From positions 682,001-746,000 of the forward strand of contig DASXDT010000006.1 in the NCBI GenBank assembly GCA_036490475.1: 64,000 nucleotides of DNA, read 5' to 3'. Made by a program: the position numbers and the translations under genes. Origin of the DNA: Candidatus Tumulicola sp. GTDB taxonomy: Bacteria; Vulcanimicrobiota; Vulcanimicrobiia; Vulcanimicrobiales; Vulcanimicrobiaceae. How positions within the stretch are numbered: the stretch's first letter is position 1; each line of letters begins with the position of its first letter. Below are positions 30,618 through 64,000 of the stretch, one piece after another. The notes beneath the pieces were generated by a model. The model was not told where the DNA came from. It searched no databases and saw only the letters and a list, made by a program, of their open reading frames with translations.

Positions 30618-31874
30618 ATGGATGCATCCGAATTCACGGCCCGTAAGACGGGCGACCTCGTTAAAATCACCGAGGGAGGATGCGCTTTTGTTCCGGACCT
30701 TTTACCGATTTCGGTTGAACTCTCCCATATGGTCAACTTGGAGCTCGAACAAGCTAGCTTGGAACTCGGGCGACTGGACGGACATGGCCAGAACCTTCCC
30801 GATCCGCAGTTGCTTATCGCGCCATTTCTTCGCAAGGAAGCGGTACTGTCGAGCCGGATCGAGGGTACCCAAACAACGTTTTCCGACTTGGTACTGTTCG
30901 AAGCGATGCAAATCCAGGAAGCTGTAAGAAGTCGCGACAATCGCGAAGTCTCGAATTATGTGAATGCTTTGTTGTACGGGTTGCAGCGGTGTAAAGAGTT
31001 ACCGCTTGGCAAGCAACTACTATGTGAAATGCACCATCTACTGCTCAGGGGCATTGAAAAGGACGAGGCGCTGCTCGGATCCTTCCGAACCGCTCAAGTG
31101 CATATCGCTCCCGCAGGTGTGCCAATCCAGTTCGCGAGATTTGTTCCGCCGCCGCCGTATCAGATTCCGGCTCTATTCGATAATTTGCAGAATTATCTCG
31201 CGGCCCCGGACGACTTGCCCCTACTAGTTCGACTCGCGATCGTGCACTATCAGTTCGAGACCATTCACCCCTTCATGGACGGCAACGGTCGTCTCGGTCG
31301 ATTATTAATTGTTTTGATGCTTTGCGCCGCTGGGCGGCTCGCCGCGCCGATGCTTTACCTAAGTGCTTACTTCGAACGCCGGCGCGGACAATATACCGAT
31401 TTGCTGCTTAATGTCAGTAGGGAGGGACGTTGGGAGGAGTGGATTTTGTTCTTCTTGCGCGGCATCGCTACGCAGGCCAGAGATGCAGTCCAACGTGCGC
31501 GCCAGTTGCAAGCATTACGCAAAGATTACAACGAACGCCTCAAGGGAGCTACTGACGCTACGCATCGGCTTGTCGATGAACTTTTCAAGCTGCCAGTAAT
31601 GACGAACAAGATAGCGGAACGTGCGACTGGATTTTCATGGCAGTCTGCGCGCGATACCGTCAAACGGCTGGAAAAAACAAAAATCATCATGCGCGTTAAT
31701 AGCCAGGATAAGGAACACATCTACCTGGCGCCAGAAATTATCGCGATCGTTGATGCGGCGGAAGCCGTCCCTCCAGCGGTCCCAGTTCTAGAATCCTACG
31801 GGCCGCCGCAGCCCTTTGAGATCACACAAGACAGTTCCGAGGTTCACGTCATCGAGGCTGGTCGCTCAGCTTAA
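30618..31874 (+). CDS. Fic-domain protein (probable AMP-transferase)
   Basis: 418 aa. The Fic active site is HPFMDGNGRLGRLL with His217. An N-terminal inhibitory helix carries SSRIEGT (Ser78, Glu82-Gly83), which places it in the class II self-inhibited group where the Glu blocks ATP. A C-terminal winged-HTH-like region (MTNKIAERATGFSWQSARDT) follows, as in many standalone Fic proteins. It modifies target proteins with AMP or another nucleotide. No partner antitoxin is adjacent, consistent with intramolecular inhibition. Confidence 0.9.
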   Translation: MDASEFTARKTGDLVKITEGGCAFVPDLLPISVELSHMVNLELEQASLELGRLDGHGQNLPDPQLLIAPFLRKEAVLSSRIEGTQTTFSDLVLFEAMQIQEAVRSRDNREVSNYVNALLYGLQRCKELPLGKQLLCEMHHLLLRGIEKDEALLGSFRTAQVHIAPAGVPIQFARFVPPPPYQIPALFDNLQNYLAAPDDLPLLVRLAIVHYQFETIHPFMDGNGRLGRLLIVLMLCAAGRLAAPMLYLSAYFERRRGQYTDLLLNVSREGRWEEWILFFLRGIATQARDAVQRARQLQALRKDYNERLKGATDATHRLVDELFKLPVMTNKIAERATGFSWQSARDTVKRLEKTKIIMRVNSQDKEHIYLAPEIIAIVDAAEAVPPAVPVLESYGPPQPFEITQDSSEVHVIEAGRSA

Positions 31875-52703: not shown

Positions 52704-52986
52704 GACCATCGAAGGGGCGTGGCTCAACGTCGTCGCGCTCCTTCCACCTTTTTCGAAGTCACGTATTGCAACAACCGAGTCGCACATCGCCCCCGCCTTT
52801 CTTTCAATCGTTTTGCGGCTTTACCAACAGGGCGATGTCAACTGATCGAACCCGCGTTATGCACGAAAGGGCTCCGGAACGGCTCGACGCTCGTGCATGC
52901 GTCGAACGACGTGTGATCTTAACAATCACTTAGCTTCGCTTGCGCGTCGTACTTTGCGCGAACAAGCCACTAGCGATGGAGGAATC

Positions 52987-54930
52987 ATGAGCGCCGCGAT
53001 AACTGAGGATGCCAACGAAGCAATAGCGGTCATCGTCGTGCATGGCGTCATGCCACATCCCAGGTATGAGATTCAAGACTTTGCGGCAAGCAACTTGCTG
53101 AAGGAGCTTCAGGTAGATCCCTATTGGGGCCAAGGTCGAACGTGGAAATCGAGCGTGTATAATCGCCCGGATCCGAAGGTCGAGAAGTCATACATGCCCA
53201 AGCCAACGATATCTCGAGTGCAGACAGTTGGCATAGACGCTGAGCCGACTCCGTATTTTGACGTCATAGAATCGTACTGGAGTCCCCTTGATAAAGGTAA
53301 GACGTCTTTTATTTCCGTCGCTGCCTGGTTGCTACGATCAGTTTTCGTCCCTTTGAACACCAGCGCGCATTATGCTGCCCGGTTTTGGAAAACGGTTTAC
53401 GATTTCGGTCTCATCTTCTCAGGCATCATCGCGGTCGTCGCATTTCTTTTGGGGGCGCTACTCGCCACCGTCGCTACTATGACGCGTCTTGTTGCGTTAG
53501 CTGGACGCTGCGAAACCGGCTCCTCGGCCAGCACTTGGATCGTACGGCTCCGTCAGGGTTCATTGCCATACTCCTGGAATGTGCTGCTTCACAAAAACTC
53601 GCTACCGCTCTTCTGGAACGCGCTGCTTCATCAGGGACCCGTGCCGAGCTCTTGGGACCTCCTGCTGAGTCCCGCAACCCGGTCGAACGTCCAACACGCG
53701 GCGCCGTGCGCTGTCGCGAGTGCCTGGAGCGTTCTTCTGAACCCAACGACTCTAGAGAGCATTTTCTCCCCGTGGACGTTAGGCATCATTGCCGCCGGAG
53801 TGGTTGGAGCATTTCTTGTTGCGCAAGTCTGCAAAGCCGTCGTGACGGTGGTATCGCAGGATAAGCAATTGCGCCGTTACGGCGAACAGCGCTACGAACG
53901 CTGGGCATTCATCGTGCTCGCGCTCGCGGGCGGTCTCGCTTTACTATTCGTGACTGCCGTTTTGCCGATCAAACCTGGCGAACCGGCGGGTGGATTAGTG
54001 CCGGTGTACTTCGTGCTGGCGGCAATGTTGTTCGTTGGCGGCCGCACCATCGCGAAGTCTTGGATTGTCAATTTTTTTGGCGATGTGCAGATCTACACGA
54101 CTCGTAACGAAAATCTCGACTTTTTCGCGATGCGCGAAGCGATATTGGAACGCGTTACGAAGACCATCGTTTCCGCATGTAAGCATGCCGGGCCTGATGG
54201 AACATCGTACGACCGGGTGTACGTGTTGGCCCATAGCCTAGGTTCGACGATCGCGATGGACGCGCTCATCCGATTTTTCGACCTGTGCGAGCAGGCTCCT
54301 GATTTGAGCCAAGCGATGAGGCGCCTTCGCGGCTTCGTGACGTTCGGATCGCCGCTCGAGAAGACGAAGTTCTTTTTTGATGTTAACGATCCGAGCCCGT
54401 CATTGGCTCTCGACCAGTGGAATAGCGATCTTTACGGCACGCTATTCACGCCAGATGCGCGCGAACTGACAAGATCGAATGAGGATGCGCAGGGAATATT
54501 CTGGTTGAACGATTGGTACTTCTTGGACGCTGTCAGCAATAAGATAAACTCGTACCGATCGTTTACCCGTGCTGGCGCTGGACTTGCCCAAGGCCCGGCC
54601 GCTCGGACCGATGCGCTGAATGCAGCGAGGGGAGGGCCAAAGAATTCCGCAGTGGTCGCGCCGGTGGTGGCGATGAATCAAATCGGGTCAAAGGGCTTCG
54701 TCTTTCCTGAAATTATTCCGCATAGCGAGTATTTGAGTGATCCTTGGTTCTGGGAAAGTAGCGGCACACACCTGGGCGTGCTTGATGTTCTGACGGGTCA
54801 ATACGCCGCTACACAGAACAGGCTCGATGCAATCCCGCCACCGCAATATCGAACCTTCAAGAGTGCGCGCTATTCCGTTGTTGAAGCCAAGGAGGCTGCG
54901 CGTTATCCCGAGCATTACAAGATCTACTAG
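52987..54930 (+). CDS. Membrane alpha/beta-hydrolase-like protein
   Basis: 647 aa. ATG 52987 follows GGAGGAATC; the frame from 52897 lacks a site. AVIVVHGVMPHPRYEIQDF near the start and VLAHSLGSTIAMDALIRFF (GHSLG-type nucleophile elbow read as AHSLGS, Ser near 416) mark an alpha/beta-hydrolase/lipase fold; SGTHLGVLDVL near the C-terminus may supply the His. The middle has three or four membrane helices (SGIIAVVAFLLGALLATV, TLGIIAAGVVGAFLVAQV, AFIVLALAGGLALLFVTA) and a tandem repeat of about 12 residues around 188-240 (SLPYSWNVLLH, SLPLFWNALLH, PVPSSWDLLLS). Substrate unknown. Confidence 0.65.
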   Translation: MSAAITEDANEAIAVIVVHGVMPHPRYEIQDFAASNLLKELQVDPYWGQGRTWKSSVYNRPDPKVEKSYMPKPTISRVQTVGIDAEPTPYFDVIESYWSPLDKGKTSFISVAAWLLRSVFVPLNTSAHYAARFWKTVYDFGLIFSGIIAVVAFLLGALLATVATMTRLVALAGRCETGSSASTWIVRLRQGSLPYSWNVLLHKNSLPLFWNALLHQGPVPSSWDLLLSPATRSNVQHAAPCAVASAWSVLLNPTTLESIFSPWTLGIIAAGVVGAFLVAQVCKAVVTVVSQDKQLRRYGEQRYERWAFIVLALAGGLALLFVTAVLPIKPGEPAGGLVPVYFVLAAMLFVGGRTIAKSWIVNFFGDVQIYTTRNENLDFFAMREAILERVTKTIVSACKHAGPDGTSYDRVYVLAHSLGSTIAMDALIRFFDLCEQAPDLSQAMRRLRGFVTFGSPLEKTKFFFDVNDPSPSLALDQWNSDLYGTLFTPDARELTRSNEDAQGIFWLNDWYFLDAVSNKINSYRSFTRAGAGLAQGPAARTDALNAARGGPKNSAVVAPVVAMNQIGSKGFVFPEIIPHSEYLSDPWFWESSGTHLGVLDVLTGQYAATQNRLDAIPPPQYRTFKSARYSVVEAKEAARYPEHYKIY

Positions 54931-55324: not shown

Positions 55325-56137
55325 ATGACCTTTCAGTCGCTGCTGAACTTACCAAATGGAGCGCGGTTCTACAAGTGCGCACTCCAGGTGAATCCGTACC
55401 ATTATGTTCAGAGCGAACAGAAGCCGACGCCGTTTGAAAACGAGACAGATTACAATCGGGCTATGGTTGAGGCTATGGCGGCCGCAGGCATCGCGGCGAT
55501 CGCAGTAACGGACCATCAAAATGTAAAGTCTTCCATCACTCTGTCGAATGCGGCTCGGGAAGCCGGCATCCACGCCTTTAACGGTTTTGAGCTTGAGTCT
55601 AAAGATGGAATTCATTTTCTAGCCCTGTTTGACGCAAGCAAAGACATCAATGTTCTTGATCGTATTCTCGGCAGCTGTGGCATCGTCGATGGCGACCGAG
55701 CTCGCAACAATCCGTGCGATCTTGAATCACATGCATTATTATCGACTATTCGACAGCACGAAGGGGTTGCTATTGCCCCGCATGCCATCATGAAGAAAGG
55801 TTTATTATACGCCGGTGGCCGTAGCCGAGCCGCGCTTTGGAGAGATACGAATCTCGAGGCCGTCGGCATACACTGCCCAGTTGTAGATATAGACGCCAAA
55901 TACCGGGACATAATCAGCAATGTAGACCCCGCGTATGACCGACCGCGGCCCGTCGCGATTTTGCACTGCAATGATGTCTGGTCGCCGGAGCAGTTCAAAC
56001 TACCCGAATCGACGAGCCTGATAAAAATGTCTGCATTTTCGCTTGCCGCATTACGTCAGGCATTCCTAGATCCTGAATCCAGGGTTCTACTGAGCAGCGA
56101 CGTTCCCCCGGAGCGAGAATGGAACTCATCGGTATAG
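55325..56137 (+). CDS. PHP-domain phosphoesterase, partner of SMC-like ATPase
   Basis: 270 aa. PHP metal motifs: YHYVQ near the N-terminus (a degenerate HxH), AVTDHQN (about 62-66), FELESKDGIHFLALF, and IAPHA (about 150). The end overlaps the start of the SMC-like gene by 19 bases. In TrlF-type proteins a PHP domain and an AAA-like ATPase occur in one chain; here the two halves are separate but coupled. Probably a nuclease or phosphodiesterase. Confidence 0.7.
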   Translation: MTFQSLLNLPNGARFYKCALQVNPYHYVQSEQKPTPFENETDYNRAMVEAMAAAGIAAIAVTDHQNVKSSITLSNAAREAGIHAFNGFELESKDGIHFLALFDASKDINVLDRILGSCGIVDGDRARNNPCDLESHALLSTIRQHEGVAIAPHAIMKKGLLYAGGRSRAALWRDTNLEAVGIHCPVVDIDAKYRDIISNVDPAYDRPRPVAILHCNDVWSPEQFKLPESTSLIKMSAFSLAALRQAFLDPESRVLLSSDVPPEREWNSSV

Positions 56138-57984
56138 AATGGATAGGAGGTTTTCTTGACGGCGTCCGGCTCCATCTCAACGATGCGATGAATGTTCTAA
56201 TCGGAGGTCGAGGGAGCGGGAAGTCCACGGTCATCGAGAGTATCCGCTATGCACTGGATCTTCAGCCCTTAAGCGAAGATGCTAAGAAGGTCGCGAGCAA
56301 TGTTCAACGCTACGTTCTTGGAAATGGAGCGAAGGTGACGCTTTACCTGAAGACACACACGCCGTCACCAAAAGTGTTCACGATAGAAAGAACCGTACCG
56401 GAACCACCTATTGTGCGTGACGATTCGGGTAAGACGCTAGACGTAAAACCTAGCGCGGTATTCGAAGGCATTCAGGTCTATGGACAGCACGAGATTGGAG
56501 AGATCGCAAAGTCGGGTAGTCAGATGACTGATCTGCTGAGACGATTCGTAGAGAAAGACGAGAATCTAGCCGTCTCTCGCATCAATTCGCAAAAGCAATT
56601 GGAAAGCAATAGGAACGCGATAGTTGGACTTTCTTCCCGCATCGATACTCTAACGGAACGTCTCTCGGCACTGCCCGCTCTCGAACTTAAGATCGAAAGA
56701 TTCGAGGAAATGAACGTTCAGTCTAAACTTCACGCCAAAACACGTCTCGTCCAAGAAGAAGCAACAATAAAACGAGCAAAGAAGCTCATCGAGCCGATAA
56801 TGCAAATGCAGCGTGACCTGAAGTCTCGATTGCCCTTAGATTCCGGGTTTGTCAATCAGACAGCACGCGAACAGGGCGGTCTTGATGCGGGACTAGAAGA
56901 AGTTGAAGCTACGTTGCTCGACCTTTCTTCGAGCTTGGTTACACTAGCAGAGGGCATCGGTAGTGTTCTAAGCGCTGCTGACGCTCGACTCGAATTGGCG
57001 GCGGCGCAATGGAAGTTGCGATCAGAAGCAAATGCGGAGGAATATGCTGCGATCCTTCGGGATTTGCAAGAGGACAACATTGATGGAACCGATTACATCG
57101 CGCTGCAGGCCAAGTTGCAAGAGCTTAGGCCGCTCAACGCCGAGTTGGCTGCGACTAAATCGCTGCTGCAGAAGTCCCAGGAAGACCGACGCGAGTTACT
57201 CGCTCAGTGGGATGATGTCCAACGACAACAGTTTGCGCTGTACGACAGCGCTGCTAAACGTCTCTCTAAGCGGTTGAACGGTCGACTGTGGGTTAGGGTG
57301 CTGTTTCAGGCCGACAAGGCGCCGCTTATCCGTCGGATTGAAAAACTTGGCGGTCGAACGAAGGAAACCAAGGAAGTGATCGGCTCCGACCAATTTTCGC
57401 TAAGGGAGTTCTCGCGAAGTGTACTGGATGGGCGGAGCGCTATTCGGGAGCGATATCCAAACATTTCTGAAGCGCAGGCCGAAAAACTGGGGTCTGCTGA
57501 TCTGTCCTTCAAGCTAGAACTACAGGAGATCGAATCGTCTCACAACACCGAAGTTCTCCTCAACGTAGGGCCGCCGCAAGGAAGCGTTCAATGGCGCTTG
57601 ATTGATCATCTCTCGACTGGTCAGCGCGCTACCGCTGTACTGCTACTTTTGCTAATAGGGACAAACGCTCCGCTCGTCATCGACCAGCCAGAAGATGATT
57701 TAGACAACGCGTTTATCAGCGAGTCCATCGTCCGAGAGCTACGGCTGTCCAAGAAAAGCCGTCAGTTTGTATTTGCCACGCACAACGCAAATATTCCAGT
57801 TTTGGCGGATGCCGAACTCATAGCAGGCTTATTTCCTGAAGGAGAAGCGGGCTCTGGACACGCGGCGATACCGATAGAGACAGTTGGTTCGATTGACTTG
57901 CCCAGCGTTCGTGATTTGGTCGGACAGGTCTTGGAAGGGGGGCGTGACGCATTCGACACGCGCCGAGTTAAATACGGATATTGA
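56119..57984 (+). CDS. SMC/RecF-like ATPase
   Basis: 621 aa. Walker A GGRGSGKST (29-37), a long coiled-coil centre, signature LSTGQRA (about 497), Walker B LVIDQPEDDLDNAF (about 518), and FATHNANI as the H-loop. This is the ABC-ATPase half of a PHP/SMC unit. It probably binds DNA and drives the PHP nuclease. The ATG lies inside the PHP gene's 3' end, ensuring coupled translation. Confidence 0.8.
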   Translation: MELIGIEWIGGFLDGVRLHLNDAMNVLIGGRGSGKSTVIESIRYALDLQPLSEDAKKVASNVQRYVLGNGAKVTLYLKTHTPSPKVFTIERTVPEPPIVRDDSGKTLDVKPSAVFEGIQVYGQHEIGEIAKSGSQMTDLLRRFVEKDENLAVSRINSQKQLESNRNAIVGLSSRIDTLTERLSALPALELKIERFEEMNVQSKLHAKTRLVQEEATIKRAKKLIEPIMQMQRDLKSRLPLDSGFVNQTAREQGGLDAGLEEVEATLLDLSSSLVTLAEGIGSVLSAADARLELAAAQWKLRSEANAEEYAAILRDLQEDNIDGTDYIALQAKLQELRPLNAELAATKSLLQKSQEDRRELLAQWDDVQRQQFALYDSAAKRLSKRLNGRLWVRVLFQADKAPLIRRIEKLGGRTKETKEVIGSDQFSLREFSRSVLDGRSAIRERYPNISEAQAEKLGSADLSFKLELQEIESSHNTEVLLNVGPPQGSVQWRLIDHLSTGQRATAVLLLLLIGTNAPLVIDQPEDDLDNAFISESIVRELRLSKKSRQFVFATHNANIPVLADAELIAGLFPEGEAGSGHAAIPIETVGSIDLPSVRDLVGQVLEGGRDAFDTRRVKYGY

Positions 57985-58165
57985 GTAGGGTCCGACCGCA
58001 TTCCCGGCAAGTCCACGAACTCGACTGGTAACCCACGTATTAATTGGCGATTCATGGATAGTCATCGCTCAGCGAAAAGGACGAGAGCCACAAGAAACTC
58101 TTCGCCTCGATTCGTTCGAAGTTATAAGGGCAGGCTACAATGGAGACGGTACCGTACGTAGATTC

Positions 58166-59158
58166 ATGACAAAGCTTGAGTCAGGTAAGGCCGATCTTTA
58201 CGAACGCTTGAGGTTGGATGTCACTGCGAGTGGCGGGTCCATGCTGCTGCTATCACCGGTAGACGAGTGGCCACAAGTGTTCTCTGTTTCACTGGGAAGC
58301 ACATCAGCAAGCGTACGCGTTTATATTTGGCATCTCACGCATGACCTTGCTCGTGGCGACTATAAGTTTCAACTTACCGGCGTTTCAGGTAATCAATTCG
58401 TATTCGAAAGTGGCGTCCGCACGATAGTCCTTGGATATTACGAACCGTTGCGGGTTTACCTGGCTGCCGACGCGAATCATCGCAGAGGCAAATTTGGTCG
58501 ATCGCCTGCGATTCAAACCCGCCAGAGTCTACTTGATAGTGCGAATGCGGACGGTTTTTGCGCGTTTACAAAGGCTCGCACGAGCGAGAGCGCGATCGTT
58601 CTGAGGCGGGATGTTATGGCGTCGTACTTAGTGGAAGCGCACTCCATCCATGCGGTCGTTGCCGGAACAAATGGCGTACAACAACTGAACGCGATGACTG
58701 CCCTAGTGGGAAACCCGTCATCAGTCATTCTGAAGCCTCGCGCAAAAGCGGCGACTACGGTGGTTCGTTCCATACGGAGTTTCGACTTCAGTAACCGAAT
58801 CATGATTGCGTACCAACACGCGTGCTGCGTCTGCGATATTCAGATGGACCTTCTGGATGCCGCTCACATTGTGCCCGTCGGGGCTCCGCTCGGAAGCGAC
58901 GACACTCGCAACGGTTTGGCGCTTTGTACGCTGCACCATAAAGCTTACGATGCTGGTTTGCTCGGGATAAAGCCGGACTATTCTATTGAAATAAGCAGTA
59001 ACCAAAGCTCGTACCTTCATGGAATTGCGCGATCGGGGGGGCTCGACATGTTCAAGGCAAACTTGCGGTCGTCCATTGCGCTTCCGTACAACAAAGCGGA
59101 CCGTCCTGACCCATCTTGCCTTCAACTTGGACTCGGATCGCGAAACTGGAAGCAATGA
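58166..59158 (+). CDS. HNH endonuclease
   Basis: 330 aa. C-terminal HNH fold: CCVCDIQMDLLDAAHIVPVG with AAHIVP, then NGLALCTLHHKAYDAGLL (about residues 218-262). The N-terminal 200 residues lack a known domain and may read DNA sequence or structure. In-frame codons upstream of the ATG (GDSWIVIAQRKGREP, FEVIRAGYNGDGTVRRF) still look like protein and are open back to 57990, but no standard start is there; the 5' end may be damaged or use a rare start. It follows the SMC gene by about 180 bases. Confidence 0.75.
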   Translation: MTKLESGKADLYERLRLDVTASGGSMLLLSPVDEWPQVFSVSLGSTSASVRVYIWHLTHDLARGDYKFQLTGVSGNQFVFESGVRTIVLGYYEPLRVYLAADANHRRGKFGRSPAIQTRQSLLDSANADGFCAFTKARTSESAIVLRRDVMASYLVEAHSIHAVVAGTNGVQQLNAMTALVGNPSSVILKPRAKAATTVVRSIRSFDFSNRIMIAYQHACCVCDIQMDLLDAAHIVPVGAPLGSDDTRNGLALCTLHHKAYDAGLLGIKPDYSIEISSNQSSYLHGIARSGGLDMFKANLRSSIALPYNKADRPDPSCLQLGLGSRNWKQ

Positions 59159-59178: not shown

Positions 59179-60375
59179 TTAGGTGATAGCCCTCGCGGCC
59201 CAAGAGCGGAGGCCGTCGCAAATGCCCTCGAATGTCGTTATTGTCGGTGAGAGCATTGATAGAGGTTTCGGTGACTCTGATTCGACGGACCACACTGCAA
59301 TGAGGGATCGCCCGATCAGTTCCTCGACGCTCTGTCGCTTCTCGTAAGCCCGAGCGTACAGTATAACTTGCGCAGTCGCACCTCGAACGCGGTCCCTCCA
59401 GTCGTCGTCCTCAAAGTATTTCGCTTCTCCTATTGCTACGACAAGATTAGAACGTCGGTCAAAGACTACAACGTCTGGTCGATCATAGCCGGTCGAGATG
59501 CCGTATTCGCGGAGGATATCAAACTCGCGCTGTTCCCAGTCGGTCAGCGTCGGCGGTGCAAAATCGGGTCCGGCTTGCTGCCAACGCACCGCGTACGGGC
59601 CGACCTCAATTATGGCGTCTGCAGTCCCTGGCAAGATGTTTTTCAAGGAGAGATCAGTATCGATACGCTCGGCTATTGCGCCCGCCATTGCAAGCGCAAG
59701 AGCTAGTTCAAACTGCCGCCAACGTTCCATGGGGCCGATCAATGCATCGGCAAGCAGATCGCGGATTGCGTCTTCGCCAAGGCGCTCGATTGCACGAAGA
59801 TGGTCATAGGCCAGGGCTGCCTTACGATACAGTTGTCGACGTGAAGAGCGCGCGGCACGAATGTCGCCAGGACTGGGTATCGTCGCTACGTCGGCCAACG
59901 GTAGGAGATGTCGCACGGTTTCTAATAGCCGGAGTCGCTCCATCGTTAGTGTAAAGTACGTGCCGGCGGTCGGGAGAATAAAACGGAATCGCCGCGCCAA
60001 CTGTACAGCGTATTTAAGGGTCCATAAAAGTACGCGATTCGGCCCAGTATAAGTCGATCGATAGGGTTCGTCGCAAACAAACATTCCATCGTCACCAGTT
60101 CGTGCCTGTAACACTAGCGTCTGCGTGGCGCGTACTGAGCCGCGAATGCCTCCTCGATTGACTAGGGTTTCTGAGTGAAGCACGGTCCCTACTTCGTGCT
60201 TGTTGTGTGCGAGGTGAAGGCAAAGATCATATACTGGTTTCGATATCGACCATTGTAGTAATAGTAGGTCGCGGTCCGATTCGTGGACGGTCGGATTCGT
60301 AACATTTTGTGGAGAACCGTTCCGGAAATACCTCAGGAGAATGCGAGTTAAATAACTCGCTAAAGGGTCACTCAC
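59179..60375 (-). CDS. PD-(D/E)XK nuclease, McrC-like partner of AAA+ protein
   Basis: 398 aa from GTG 60375, overlapping the AAA gene by 4 bases (GTGA). The C-terminal core RPDVVVFDRRSNLVVAIGEA then AKYFEDD has Asp, Glu and Lys in the PD...ExK pattern (about residues 300-322), followed by a QVILYARAYE helix. The long helical N-terminus resembles DUF2357-type McrC relatives. It would cut DNA when driven by the AAA+ partner. Last gene of the four-gene operon. Confidence 0.75.
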   Translation of the reverse strand: MSDPLASYLTRILLRYFRNGSPQNVTNPTVHESDRDLLLLQWSISKPVYDLCLHLAHNKHEVGTVLHSETLVNRGGIRGSVRATQTLVLQARTGDDGMFVCDEPYRSTYTGPNRVLLWTLKYAVQLARRFRFILPTAGTYFTLTMERLRLLETVRHLLPLADVATIPSPGDIRAARSSRRQLYRKAALAYDHLRAIERLGEDAIRDLLADALIGPMERWRQFELALALAMAGAIAERIDTDLSLKNILPGTADAIIEVGPYAVRWQQAGPDFAPPTLTDWEQREFDILREYGISTGYDRPDVVVFDRRSNLVVAIGEAKYFEDDDWRDRVRGATAQVILYARAYEKRQSVEELIGRSLIAVWSVESESPKPLSMLSPTITTFEGICDGLRSWAARAIT

Positions 60376-61442
60376 AACCCGATGGAAATCATCTGTTGTT
60401 TGAACCGGCTGGCGGTGCCCGGCTCAAGGTCTAATTGTTCGATCACTGCATCAGCCACCTTGCGAATCTCATCCTGCAAGATTCCATCGAGCATTGGCAT
60501 GACATTTATCATGAATGCGTCCAGGTAACTTTGCGACGTTCCGGTGTCAGGTGCCGCAGAAAAATCGAAATTAGCGTCTACGACCAGGCAGTGATTTATG
60601 ATGTCGATAAACGGTGCTGAGCCAATCGGGCGAATGGAATTTACTGATTGCAAGATCGTTCCTAGAGGAAGATTCCCGCCGGTCAATGTTTTATTTTTGC
60701 GCTTCGTTATAAATTCAAACAAGAATCCATTGAGATCGATCGGCACGTCGATGAAAATCCAAGCGAAGCGACGACTCAATGCGTAGCTCATCTGGTAGAG
60801 CGAGGCCTTGTCGATCGTGTTAATCGTAGCAAGAATCCGCCACTCGGGTCCCGGAGAATACTTTGGTTCCGCGTACCCAGGCTGAAAGGTCCCGAAGATT
60901 TGGTATTGTTCCGAGTCCCTATTCGCAACGTCGACGCGATAAGGAAGAGTTGTTGTGTGGCCCGAGAGCACAGTGAACATTGGGCCAAGCACTTTATCGA
61001 TATCGCAACGATTCAACTCATCAATGATGATTGGGCGATCGAAGGAGCGTAGCATGATGCCGGGGATGAAAGAGATTTTTCCGTCGCCGATTGGTTGATA
61101 TCCGCCGATGAGATCCTGCGAGGTCCAGTCTGCCGAGCCTGTTACGAGTGTAAATCCGTTCGAGCTGACCTGCGCGGCAATCTCCGAGGCGAGTTGTGTT
61201 TTCCCTGTGCCAGGAGGCCCGTACAGCATCAGGTGGCGCTTCCCCGATTTAATGGCGGCTTCAACTTGACGATAGACGGCCTCGTCAATTCCTATCAGAG
61301 TCGAACTTTTCGCGATGGTGTGTAGTAGCAGCGGCTCGGCCGCCTTCGAAGCGTTATATTCTACCAGTGCTGTCCGGCTCGCTTCAACCGCTGCGGCCAA
61401 TGATGCCGGATCGTCGGCTTGGTAGACGGGAACAGTACTCAT
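60372..61442 (-). CDS. McrB-like AAA+ ATPase
   Basis: 356 aa. Walker A GPPGTGKT (75-82), Walker B RPIIIDELNR (136-145), sensor-1 LATINTIDK (Asn208), and an arginine-finger-like LSRRFAW (about 223). This is the MoxR/McrB branch of AAA+ proteins that pairs with a nuclease partner. It carries no modified-base-reading domain itself. Start overlaps the preceding stop (ATGA). Confidence 0.8.
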   Translation of the reverse strand: MSTVPVYQADDPASLAAAVEASRTALVEYNASKAAEPLLLHTIAKSSTLIGIDEAVYRQVEAAIKSGKRHLMLYGPPGTGKTQLASEIAAQVSSNGFTLVTGSADWTSQDLIGGYQPIGDGKISFIPGIMLRSFDRPIIIDELNRCDIDKVLGPMFTVLSGHTTTLPYRVDVANRDSEQYQIFGTFQPGYAEPKYSPGPEWRILATINTIDKASLYQMSYALSRRFAWIFIDVPIDLNGFLFEFITKRKNKTLTGGNLPLGTILQSVNSIRPIGSAPFIDIINHCLVVDANFDFSAAPDTGTSQSYLDAFMINVMPMLDGILQDEIRKVADAVIEQLDLEPGTASRFKQQMISIGL

Positions 61443-62119
61443 TCTTCGTTCTTCTCTTCGCCGGCCGGTGTCGTTACCACAGGAGTAATGTTAATCAACT
61501 GTGTTAGAGCCTTCGTCGCGTCGCCGTATGTCAACTGTCCGCTATCGACCTTCCAGACGTCGCTATCGGGGGTAAGTTCAAAAAGCGACGCGGTGACATA
61601 GGGCTGCGCGACGGCGCGACCGTCAATGGTGCTTTCGAGGCGACCGGTTCTCGGGTCGAAATCAATTGTGGCGCCCGAGCTTCCGCGTTCGACGAAAAGC
61701 GCCAATCCAGGAAAGACAAACGCGAGTCCCCACTCCCAGTACGGGTGAGCCTCGAATCGAACGCTACTTGCCGCGGATTCTATCCGCACCACAGGGATAA
61801 TGCGGCACAAAACGCCTTGCAGCGGACTTTTAGTGTTGTAGGTGCCTGTTAGGCGTTTGGCATGCGTTGCATTTGGTAGAACGGCTTTCCAGGATCCGCT
61901 ACTCGCGTTAAAATGAAAGTGCACGAGCCATGCGAGCGGCTTACCATCGACGCCATCCGGTTTCCAATTGCCAGTCATTGTGCTGATTTCGGGAAGCTGC
62001 TCGCGCGTCTTCTTCGAGCCTGCCTGGCTAATCTGCCGGTCAGAAATGTCGTTGAGCAAGGCAGTTAGCGCAGCTCCGACCTTTTTCCGTGCTGCTGCTA
62101 CGGACTCCACATCTGGCAA
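61439..62119 (-). CDS. Unknown component of restriction-like operon
   Basis: 226 aa from TTG 62119, ten bases after AAGGAGG. Beta-rich centre (KPLAWLVHFHFNASSGSW, FEAHPYWEWGLAFVFPGLAL) and a short helical start. No family recognised. Its end overlaps the AAA gene and it lies between the methyltransferase and the AAA+ protein, so it may be the specificity or modified-DNA-reading subunit. Confidence 0.6.
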   Translation of the reverse strand: MPDVESVAAARKKVGAALTALLNDISDRQISQAGSKKTREQLPEISTMTGNWKPDGVDGKPLAWLVHFHFNASSGSWKAVLPNATHAKRLTGTYNTKSPLQGVLCRIIPVVRIESAASSVRFEAHPYWEWGLAFVFPGLALFVERGSSGATIDFDPRTGRLESTIDGRAVAQPYVTASLFELTPDSDVWKVDSGQLTYGDATKALTQLINITPVVTTPAGEEKNEE

Positions 62120-62175: not shown

Positions 62176-63453
62176 TCAGGCGAAGGTTGGTGTCGATCGA
62201 ACGAGCCGACTCACACCAGCGCTCTCTTGAGTTTCACAATGTTCTTCAGCAACATATCGCTGAGGCCGCCGAGCGCCACCGTCGGCCGGCAACGGCTCGT
62301 CTCTGCCAGAATCTAACGGGAGAGCGCAGGGTTGATGGATCGCGTACTTGACCGGCGTCGGTCGCTCCGGTGTGCCGTCGCTGAGGAACCGGCCACGCGC
62401 ACCCTCCAAATATGTTTGCTCGAGTTCGCAGCAGAGCCAGCGGCGCTTTAGAGTTTCCGCAACCTCGCCGGTTACACACGAACCGGCGAATGGATCTAAC
62501 ACGGTGTCCCCCGGATCGGTTAGCATTCGGATGAAGTATTCAGGGAGCGCTGCGGGATAGCGTGCGGGGTGAGGCTGGATGCCGTGTTGCTTGCAATATG
62601 CCTGATAACGACCGTTAGATTCGGTGTTTGCTACTGCGAGTAAGTTCGGCGGAACAGATCCGGCATTTCGTTTCGAAAAGTTCTCGGAAATGTCGTGCCC
62701 GGACGGACGCAATTTCGCCTTATAACCGTTTTTCAAGAGGTATTCCATGGCTTCGGAGTACGGAGCAAGAACGCGCTTATTGCTTGCTTTCGGCCACGGC
62801 GTTTTGCTCAACCACCAAACGGTATTGATCGCATCCTTGACGCGTACGCGACGGATGTTCACCCACTCCGCAGGCGTGGGAAGTTTGGCCGGGTTCCACC
62901 AGTAGTGCTCCTGACACAAATGAAAGCCGTACTCTCTGCAGAGCATGATCAACAATTCGAAGTGATAGAGCGATCTGGCGGGGATACCGGGCTTCCACGA
63001 TCCGCCAATATCTATGACCAAGCTTCCTTTTGGAGCAAGTACTCGGTTAAAGCCTTCAGCAAATGGGCGGAACCATTGCAAGTATGCATCCGCGTCCTCA
63101 TTCCCATACGATTTTTTTCGCACCAAGCCGAATGGGGGCGAGGTCATAATTAAGTTCACAGAATTCGGGGCGAGCGTGTGATGCATCAACCCCAGTGAAT
63201 CACCCAGGTACATAGTCCCGCTCGGTGTGTGGTGGAACTGACGCGGCCGCCCGTAACGGGAATCGGCTTTTTTCCTTTGCGCATTTTCTGCTGACATACT
63301 CTGCCTGTACGCGACGTGAAGGTAACGCACGTACTGGCTGAGTGACTCGAACCCCAAGGTTCGATACTCGGCTTCCATTTGGGAGCGCTCAGTTGACGTT
63401 AGGCGGACGTTGGCGATCGAGATCCTAGGGGCGGGGGACTTCGGTCTGCCCAT
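62176..63453 (-). CDS. DNA methyltransferase with N-terminal RHH-like segment
   Basis: 425 aa from ATG 63453, preceded by AGGAGAACA; frames further upstream are non-coding. Motif IV is TSPPFGL (104-110), the SPP form typical of N4-cytosine and some N6-adenine enzymes; motif I DPFAGSCVTGEV (320-331) follows it, giving the beta-class order. The first 50 residues (NVRLTSTERSQMEAEYRTLG, then LSQYVRYLH) look like a ribbon-helix-helix DNA-binding segment, which could allow autoregulation. It would protect host DNA for the downstream nuclease. Confidence 0.8.
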   Translation of the reverse strand: MGRPKSPAPRISIANVRLTSTERSQMEAEYRTLGFESLSQYVRYLHVAYRQSMSAENAQRKKADSRYGRPRQFHHTPSGTMYLGDSLGLMHHTLAPNSVNLIMTSPPFGLVRKKSYGNEDADAYLQWFRPFAEGFNRVLAPKGSLVIDIGGSWKPGIPARSLYHFELLIMLCREYGFHLCQEHYWWNPAKLPTPAEWVNIRRVRVKDAINTVWWLSKTPWPKASNKRVLAPYSEAMEYLLKNGYKAKLRPSGHDISENFSKRNAGSVPPNLLAVANTESNGRYQAYCKQHGIQPHPARYPAALPEYFIRMLTDPGDTVLDPFAGSCVTGEVAETLKRRWLCCELEQTYLEGARGRFLSDGTPERPTPVKYAIHQPCALPLDSGRDEPLPADGGARRPQRYVAEEHCETQESAGVSRLVRSTPTFA

Positions 63454-63482
63454 TGTTCTCCTAGCAGGCTTCGGCTGAAACG

Positions 63483-63517
63483 AGTATAGCTCAGGGTTTC
63501 TTGTATTACAAGAACCC
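63483..63517 (-). promoter_or_regulatory. Methyltransferase promoter with overlapping operator
   Basis: On the minus strand: -35 TTGTAA (63511-63506), 17-base spacer, -10 TATACT (63488-63483). The -35 lies inside an inverted repeat, GGGTTTCTTGTA (63494-63505) and TACAAGAACCC (63507-63517), broken by one base. It fits binding by a dimeric HTH controller, most likely the divergent gene at 63561 or the RHH-like part of the methyltransferase. Confidence 0.65.
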
Positions 63518-63560
63518 CTCTGGGAGGAATCAACCCAGTGTGGCTCGTTGCTAGAGGGCC

Positions 63561-63779
63561 ATGAAGAGCAGCTTGACCTACCGGGACGCAGAACATGAGG
63601 GAAGAGCCTCCGCGCTCCGCAACCGAATAGAGACAGCCGGCTTGACGATTGCGGAATTTCGTCGGCGAGCCGGCTTCTCTCGAAATATTGCCTACGCCAT
63701 TTCCAAGGGGCGCGAGATGACACCAGATGAGCGAAAGCGAGCCGACAAGGCCCTGGAGGGCGGCAAGGCCCCAAACTAG
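63561..63779 (+). CDS. Small HTH controller protein
   Basis: 72 aa. HTH: AGLTIAEFRRRAGFSRNIAYAI then SKGREMTPDERKRADKAL. It is divergent from the methyltransferase with the operator/promoter between them, the arrangement of C-protein-controlled restriction systems. Single-domain, so probably a repressor or activator of the methyltransferase operon. Confidence 0.65.
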   Translation: MKSSLTYRDAEHEGRASALRNRIETAGLTIAEFRRRAGFSRNIAYAISKGREMTPDERKRADKALEGGKAPN

Positions 63780-64000
63780 CCGAGTCGTAGGTGGTTCGGA
63801 ACGTCCTGAGCGCTCCAGGAGCACCAGGTGTCCCGAGTCCGACCGCTGGTTCTAGTTGCGGGTCTACAATGAAGTCGCGCTGAGGGCCAGAGCTACCGAA
63901 AGACATGCGCAGGAGAACTCATTCTGCTCGTCTGCATCGCAATAGGTCTGGCGATCGAAACCATTCAATGAGGACAGGCCACCTACGTTCCATACCGGAG
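63780..64000. other. Window edge, no gene seen
   Basis: No supported frame in the last 221 bases. Confidence 0.4.

What the first reader, a model, noticed from the sequence alone, without database searches (positions are those of the whole stretch)
55325..59158. PHP nuclease, SMC-like ATPase and HNH nuclease module converging on the restriction operon
The PHP and SMC-like genes overlap by 19 bases; together they match the two halves of TrlF-type PHP-ATPase proteins, here split. An HNH nuclease with an unknown N-terminus follows. The module ends 20 bases from the restriction operon's end. Two potential antiphage systems share a convergent junction.
Basis: partly seen in the sequence, partly recalled or inferred. 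Interest (0 to 1): 0.6.

Follow-up and report, generated by a model that had tools for sequence, protein, structure and literature searches.

The report
Frameshifted TrlF gene beside restriction locus
Three genes read as one new antiphage module are really two neighbours: a known two-domain defence gene cut in two by a one-letter frameshift, and an HNH cutting enzyme that, judging by its relatives, belongs to a DNA-methylase restriction system.

Summary
The three-gene 'module' is not supported. (1) The PHP and ATPase ORFs are the halves of a TrlF protein. In 166 other loci, 103 are fused and none is split; where most close relatives have 9 bases between two homologous residues the window has 8, so the split is a one-base frameshift, real or an assembly error. 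(2) The usual TrlF partner (Schlafen AlbA_2 plus HATPase_c_4, TrlG-like), directly downstream in 29 of 34 close relatives, is missing here. (3) The HNH gene does not travel with TrlF (no full-length HNH relative in 80 TrlF loci). Its N-terminus is MTaX1. In 6 of 6 full-length relatives found it lies beside a DNA methylase, in 5 of them of the same family (55-65% identical) as the methylase heading the opposing operon. The HNH gene therefore most likely belongs to the restriction locus. All lies in a low-GC (54.5% against 61%) island. Ordinary overall; a methylase family shared by two restriction arms is the more interesting part.

The parts
55325..56137 (+). PHP half of a TrlF-family protein (270 aa)
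   Evidence: NF045780 profile 1-278, 125.4 bits; Pfam PHP; AlphaFold model pLDDT 90.6 with PHP fold, best Endonuclease Q Z 18.5; 28-48% identical to 29 relatives
56077..56137 (+). frameshift zone: both frames open here; C5 run at 56105-56109, GGAG and the ATPase ATG at 56119; 8 bases between PHP residue 263 and ATPase residue 2 where most close fused relatives have 9 (others 6, 12, 15 or 18)
56119..57984 (+). SMC-like ABC ATPase half of the TrlF-family protein (621 aa); Walker A, signature LSTGQ, Walker B DQPEDD and THNANIP kept
   Evidence: NF045780 profile 298-944, 329.4 bits; invariant columns of alignment A1
57985..58165 (+). 181-base gap where a TrlG-like (SLFN_AlbA_2/HATPase_c_4) gene lies in most relatives; no credible remnant found
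58166..59158 (+). MTaX1-HNH endonuclease gene (330 aa), assigned here to the restriction locus
   Evidence: PF20296 and HNH_2; relatives beside methylases
59179..60375 (-). 398-aa protein with a PD-(D/E)XK-like motif (read by eye); homologues follow the AAA ATPase in Ensifer and Novacetimonas plasmids
   Evidence: no Pfam match
60372..61442 (-). AAA_5 (McrB/MoxR-like) ATPase, 356 aa
   Evidence: PF07728 E 6.6e-20; 49-50% to two plasmid relatives
61439..62119 (-). 226-aa protein; looks like the N-terminal half of the 583/586-aa fused ATPase of Ensifer and Novacetimonas (similarity read by eye, no BLAST match)
62176..63453 (-). N6/N4 DNA methylase with an N-terminal extension; likely true start Met-152 of the longer ORF 62176-63906
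   Evidence: PF01555 E 3.6e-37; 55-67% to methylases beside MTaX1-HNH and beside AAA/398 genes; start region

Best explanation
Two unrelated defence loci lie side by side in a horizontally acquired island. Locus 1 is a TrlF gene (PHP domain plus SMC-like ABC ATPase, normally one ~900-aa protein followed by a TrlG-like gene) that has a one-base frameshift exactly between its two domains and no TrlG next to it. The frameshift leaves two intact ORFs; the second has its own ATG with a GGAG five bases before it, so two polypeptides could be made by coupled translation, or the gene may be inactive, or the missing base may be an assembly error. Locus 2 is a restriction-modification locus that includes the HNH gene: the methylase marks host DNA, and the MTaX1-HNH nuclease and the AAA_5/398-aa pair are its restriction arms. 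Shown by sequence: domain content, the one-base difference, absence of TrlG, methylase linkage of the HNH family. Inferred: all biochemical activities; that TrlF works like its distant relative Ppl (nucleic-acid-end sensing by the ATPase, cutting by PHP); that HNH and methylase share a target site.
For: 103 fused and 0 split among 166 other loci; among the 34 loci at 36% identity or more to the window ATPase, 33 are fused and 1 is cut by its contig end; linker 8 bases here, a multiple of 3 in all 33 listed fused relatives. Partner gene directly downstream in 29 of 34 close loci (3 too short downstream, 2 absent) and in 27 of the other 46; none found in the window's genome (one query only). MTaX1-HNH beside a methylase in 6 of 6 full-length relatives (L037, L038, L137, L138, L152, L153), 5 of them the window's methylase family at 55-65%. 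L137 holds the 398-aa gene, methylase and HNH gene together. GC 54.5% in the window against a mean of 61.1% over 38 stretches of the same genome. No full-length HNH relative in the other 102 genomes of the order and no ATPase match in the one other genome of the genus.
Against: In the window the HNH gene is 3 kb from the methylase, on the opposite strand, and on the same strand as TrlF with no terminator found between, so co-transcription with TrlF is possible. The HNH sample is small (6). The window's TrlF halves depart from conserved positions more than most relatives (10 of 60 PHP, 49 of 205 ATPase; rank 31 of 33 each); this fits either decay or a deep separate branch with its own biology. 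Two of 34 close loci also lack the partner.
Confidence: 0.82

Rival explanations
1. The split is selected: a working two-subunit TrlF in which PHP and ATPase are made by translational coupling across the 19-base overlap and then assemble.
For: Both ORFs intact; ATPase ATG has GGAG five bases before it; the Met is at a position that is ATG in 5 of 33 fused relatives; motifs kept; no other frame jump without stop codons inside the match in 99 homologous regions (108 kb) of the same genome.
Against: No second example in 166 loci; the usual partner is missing; a C5 run at the site is a typical place for a chance or sequencing indel (recalled); long branch and raised number of unusual residues.
Confidence: 0.15
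2. Assembly or consensus error: the living cell has a normal fused TrlF gene.
For: One-base difference next to a C5 run; relatives fused; the genome is a draft of 7 contigs.
Against: Other homologous genes of this genome show no credible frameshift (1 of 99 regions, the TrlF itself).
Confidence: 0.35
3. The first reader's module: PHP, ATPase and HNH are three subunits of one antiphage system.
For: Same strand, short distances, no terminator between.
Against: No full-length HNH relative in 80 TrlF loci; HNH relatives go with methylases in 6 of 6.
Confidence: 0.04
4. The HNH protein is a stand-alone modification-dependent (type IV) nuclease, MTaX1 reading a modified base, independent of the methylase across the junction.
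For: HNH part is nearest to TagI among solved structures (E 2.4e-6) and to the PT-DNA restriction family (54.8 bits, below its cut-off of 180); MTaX1 is described as potentially involved in discriminating modified DNA (PMC10853773, passage seen).
Against: Methylase next to it in 6 of 6 relatives, which suggests protection of self rather than attack on methylated DNA; the two ideas are not exclusive.
Confidence: 0.2
5. Septu-like pair: the SMC-like ATPase plus HNH act as PtuA and PtuB.
For: ATPase plus HNH on one strand; weak PtuA profile matches (17.9-22.3 bits).
Against: Far stronger TrlF match (329 bits); HNH carries MTaX1 and matched two restriction-type HNH profiles, no PtuB profile.
Confidence: 0.01

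Closest known systems
TrlF family (NCBIfam NF045780), trl operon of Photorhabdus (PMC7554251, abstract and passages seen)
   Same: PHP domain then SMC-like ABC ATPase; the halves together align over nearly the whole profile
   Different: two ORFs with a one-base frameshift instead of one; no trlG-like gene downstream (L098, Photorhabdus akhurstii, has one)
Ppl anti-phage protein (NF042955; PADLOC Ppl)
   Same: PHP plus NTPase in one protein; distant match (47.0 and 120.4 bits); described as a 3'-5' ssDNA exonuclease system released by nucleotide depletion and 3' ends (PMC12904381, passage seen)
   Different: far below the Ppl cut-off of 1000 bits; first PHP metal motif HxH replaced by Q-x-N in the window's clade
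MTaX1-containing restriction systems (PF20296; PMC10853773, passage seen)
   Same: MTaX1 domain joined to HNH, linked to a DNA methylase
   Different: here the methylase is across a convergent junction, with the AAA_5/398-aa genes between
McrBC-like AAA_5 plus nuclease
   Same: AAA_5 ATPase with a weak McrB match (31.6 bits) and a partner with a PD-(D/E)XK-like motif (by eye)
   Different: partner has no Pfam match; own methylase in the same operon
Septu (PtuA-PtuB)
   Same: ATPase and HNH genes in one direction
   Different: neither protein is the Septu one by profile

Membership tests
TrlF (NF045780) | PHP plus ABC ATPase sequence over the whole profile | tested here: met
   profile 1-278 and 298-944 covered by the two ORFs
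TrlF (NF045780) | one protein scoring over the curated cut-off of 350 bits | tested here: not met
   125.4 and 329.4 bits apart; three fused relatives score 481-553
TrlF (NF045780) | single continuous ORF | tested here: not met
   window split; of 166 other loci 103 fused, 0 split, 63 without a PHP profile match
trl operon (trlF-trlG) | SLFN_AlbA_2/HATPase_c_4 gene directly downstream | tested here: not met
   present in 56 of 80 genome loci, absent in the window
Ppl | score over the Ppl cut-off | tested here: not met
   47.0 and 120.4 bits against 1000
MTaX1-HNH restriction endonuclease of an R-M system | MTaX1 and HNH domains with HNH residues kept | tested here: met
   H234, N249, H257, H258 and C220, C223, C254 invariant in alignments of 3
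MTaX1-HNH restriction endonuclease of an R-M system | methylase of the cognate family in the same locus | tested here: met
   methylase 62176-63453, 55-65% to those beside HNH relatives; but 3 kb away and on the other strand here
MTaX1-HNH restriction endonuclease of an R-M system | cuts DNA that the methylase does not protect | not testable with these tools
   needs enzyme assay
Septu | PtuB-type HNH and PtuA ATPase as best matches | tested here: not met
   PADLOC and NCBIfam scans
MADS | full mad gene set | tested here: inconclusive
   only weak mad3 (57 bits) and mad8 (25.8 bits) profile matches listed for 10 window proteins; other mad genes not sought beyond these
Anti-phage function of any of these genes | protection in phage challenge | not testable with these tools
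   experiment

The most novel reading that the evidence does not exclude
One methylase family serves two different restriction arms: an MTaX1-HNH nuclease and an AAA_5 plus 398-aa nuclease-like pair. The window holds both arms with this methylase, viral contig L137 holds the methylase with HNH and the 398-aa gene, other loci hold one arm each; so the locus would be a two-effector restriction system with one shared self-mark.
Probability: 0.4. Interest if true: 0.5.

Novelty: new member of a known kind. Interest (0 to 1): 0.3.

Why it matters
It stops a false 'three-gene antiphage module' from entering the record and gives a simple rule for sorting such junctions: compare fused relatives base by base, and ask which neighbour the nuclease family follows elsewhere. 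If the methylase-plus-two-arms reading holds, it shows how restriction loci swap or stack effectors around one protective enzyme.

Tried and rejected
Programmed -1 frameshifting: none of the 21 in-frame heptamers listed across the zone where both frames are open is a canonical X XXY YYZ site. A conserved internal start making a separate ATPase in all TrlF: only 5 of 33 fused relatives have ATG there. A remnant of a methylase or of TrlG in the 181-base gap: only chance-level matches (E 0.02 or worse). A longer HNH protein with a non-ATG start: the open frame runs 59 codons upstream, but the plasmid relative L038 begins at the window's Met-1. Pervasive indel errors in the genome: 5 frame-jump candidates in 99 homologous regions; the four besides TrlF have stop codons inside the matched piece; the control genome gave 3 in 111 regions, not inspected further. 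Two splits in one window as a sign of bad assembly (226-aa and AAA_5 genes, fused in Ensifer): their junction is an ordinary ATGA overlap after a variable linker. The structure of the HNH protein could not be predicted usefully (3 sequences, pLDDT 43) and was not searched. Viral contigs gave no close TrlF relative: those aligned over the full ATPase in one stretch at best 30%, higher figures being for single segments. Paper searches for TrlF/PHP systems gave one relevant primary paper (Photorhabdus) and one relevant review; 'MTaX1' gave one relevant paper; searches for Schlafen/AlbA_2 with PHP and for methylase/McrBC/HNH gave nothing relevant. I make no claim that the split or the two-arm locus is unpublished beyond these searches.
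Full report
WHAT IS THERE. NCBIfam TrlF (NF045780) is the best family for the first two, the first covering profile positions 1-278 and the second 298-944. The third has MTaX1 (PF20296) at residues 50-155 and HNH_2 at 220-268. The minus-strand operon encodes an N6/N4 methylase, a 226-aa protein, an AAA_5 ATPase and a 398-aa protein; the 226-aa and 398-aa proteins have no Pfam match.

THE SPLIT IS A ONE-BASE FRAMESHIFT. Of these, 71 carry at least 200 aa ahead of the ATPase in the same ORF, 6 have an ATPase-only ORF and 3 are cut by a contig end; in the class with 36% identity or more to the window ATPase, 33 of 34 are fused and the other is cut by its contig end. With profiles of both domains over the 80 genome loci, 79 viral loci and 7 others, 103 are fused, 63 have no PHP profile match (8, 52 and 3; some are cut by contig ends or have a divergent N-terminus, for example G087/L140, which matches TrlF over its full length), and none except the window has the PHP in a separate ORF. 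Between PHP residue 263 and ATPase residue 2 the 33 listed fused relatives have 6, 9, 12, 15 or 18 bases, mostly 9, and 31 of 33 have a His codon just before the ATPase part; the window has 8 bases. The zone holds a C5 run, and the ATPase ATG follows a GGAG. No canonical -1 slippery heptamer is present.

ERROR, DECAY OR FUNCTION? I tested the genome for other frameshifts. In 824 kb (38 stretches and the window) 1702 reference ORFs gave 99 homologous regions and five frame-jump candidates; the four besides TrlF have stop codons in the matched piece. The control genome gave 3 in 111 regions. So the assembly is not generally riddled with indels, but a single error beside a C5 run is not excluded. 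The two halves keep the residues invariant in the alignments, yet depart from positions conserved in relatives at 10 of 60 (PHP) and 49 of 205 (ATPase) sites, rank 31 of 33 in both, and the window is a long branch with weak placement (clade support 0.459). These data fit decay and deep divergence alike.

THE USUAL PARTNER IS MISSING. A neighbour comparison showed one gene directly downstream of TrlF in most loci. It has SLFN_AlbA_2 and HATPase_c_4 domains (three members scanned). It is present within 1.5 kb downstream in 29 of 34 close loci (3 have too little sequence, 2 lack it) and 27 of the other 46. The set includes Photorhabdus akhurstii (L098). In Photorhabdus laumondii the gene next to trlF, trlG, is described as having a RecG-like helicase domain, and mutations in it lift a temperature restriction (PMC7554251, abstract and passages); that L098's neighbour is trlG is my inference from position and domains. 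The window has no such gene and no match to 51 partner proteins, and one partner query found none in the whole genome (an empty answer to one query is weak).

THE HNH GENE MOST LIKELY BELONGS TO THE RESTRICTION LOCUS. Full-length relatives were found on two plasmids (2 of 31 plasmid records with any match cover 80% or more), in one of 390 genomes of another order, in one of 48 TrlF-bearing genomes and in two viral contigs; none of the other 148 genomes of the window's phylum has one at E 1e-35. In all six a methylase gene is adjacent: Roseivivax L037 and L152 (same strand, directly upstream), Thiothrix L038 (overlapping), viral L137 and L138 (divergent), Actinomycetota L153 (two C5-methylase-like genes, identified from the sequence by eye). 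In five of six the methylase is of the window's own family, 55-65% identical. The window's AAA_5 and 398-aa genes have relatives on an Ensifer and a Novacetimonas plasmid, there too next to a methylase of this family (63.5% and 67%), and viral L137 carries the 398-aa gene, this methylase and the HNH gene in a row. In the TrlF loci, by contrast, no full-length HNH relative occurs (0 of 80; one weak domain match). TrlF itself often lies among type I restriction genes: an annotated case is Citrobacter L044, and neighbour clusters that I read by eye as HsdM, HsdS and HsdR occur in 7, 6 and 4 loci. The annotated plasmid copies in Xanthomonas, Staphylococcus and Acetobacter have no restriction gene within 5 kb in the listed annotation.

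SETTING. Window GC is 54.5% with the TrlF ORFs at 52%, against a mean of 61.1% over 38 stretches of the genome. The stretch before the window (660001-680000) is at 62-65%, the one after it (746001-766000) at 51-55%. So the window lies in an island of at least 84 kb that begins within about 2 kb of the window start. The other genome held of the genus has no match to the ATPase or to the HNH gene.

HOW IT LIKELY WORKS. Shown: domains, order, linkage, frameshift. From the literature: Ppl, a distant relative, is described as a 3'-5' ssDNA exonuclease system released by nucleotide depletion and 3' ends (PMC12904381, passage), and MTaX1 as potentially involved in discriminating modified DNA (PMC10853773, passage). 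Inferred: TrlF senses nucleic-acid ends or damage through the ATPase and acts through the PHP domain. The PHP model has the PHP fold (best Endonuclease Q, Z 18.5, rmsd 4.3 over 229 residues), but 28 of 30 aligned proteins, the window's included, have lost the N-terminal HxH, so its chemistry is open. The restriction locus would mark self DNA by the methylase and cut unmarked DNA by HNH and by the AAA_5/398 pair. In the window, TrlF works only if the two polypeptides assemble, or if the frameshift is an assembly error.

VERDICT. The three-gene module reading is not supported; the TrlF reading is. Ordinary in kind, with one open and testable point: whether one methylase family protects against two kinds of restriction arm.

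Noticed in passing
L119, L121, L124, L125; L043 4995-9141: TrlF-like ATPases of ~610-660 aa without a PHP domain are followed by a related ~380-aa gene (HATPase with HEAT repeats in the two scanned) and, in L121, L124 and L125, by a response-regulator receiver gene; in Rhizobium L043 by a HATPase gene and a receiver plus TCAD9/APH gene. A separate arrangement that I did not look up in print.
   Followed up: partly
L139 9358-14280 (genome G096, same family as the window): ATPase-only TrlF relative with a TatD-type DNase gene divergent upstream and a TCAD9/APH gene overlapping its end.
   Followed up: partly
window 60372-62119: The 226-aa and AAA_5 genes correspond in length and order to a single 583/586-aa gene in Ensifer and Novacetimonas; ordinary ATGA overlap here.
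   Followed up: yes
window 62176-63906: The methylase ORF is probably over-long; homology starts at Met-152 (63453); its N-terminal part recurs in L137, L138, L150 and, in part, L151.
   Followed up: partly
window 1-64000 and on to 766 kb of contig C6: Low-GC island of at least 84 kb; no tRNA in the window.
   Followed up: partly
window 52897-54930: 677-aa ORF just upstream of the TrlF halves without any Pfam, PADLOC or NCBIfam match.
   Followed up: no
window 30618-31874: Fic/DOC family protein in the same island.
   Followed up: no
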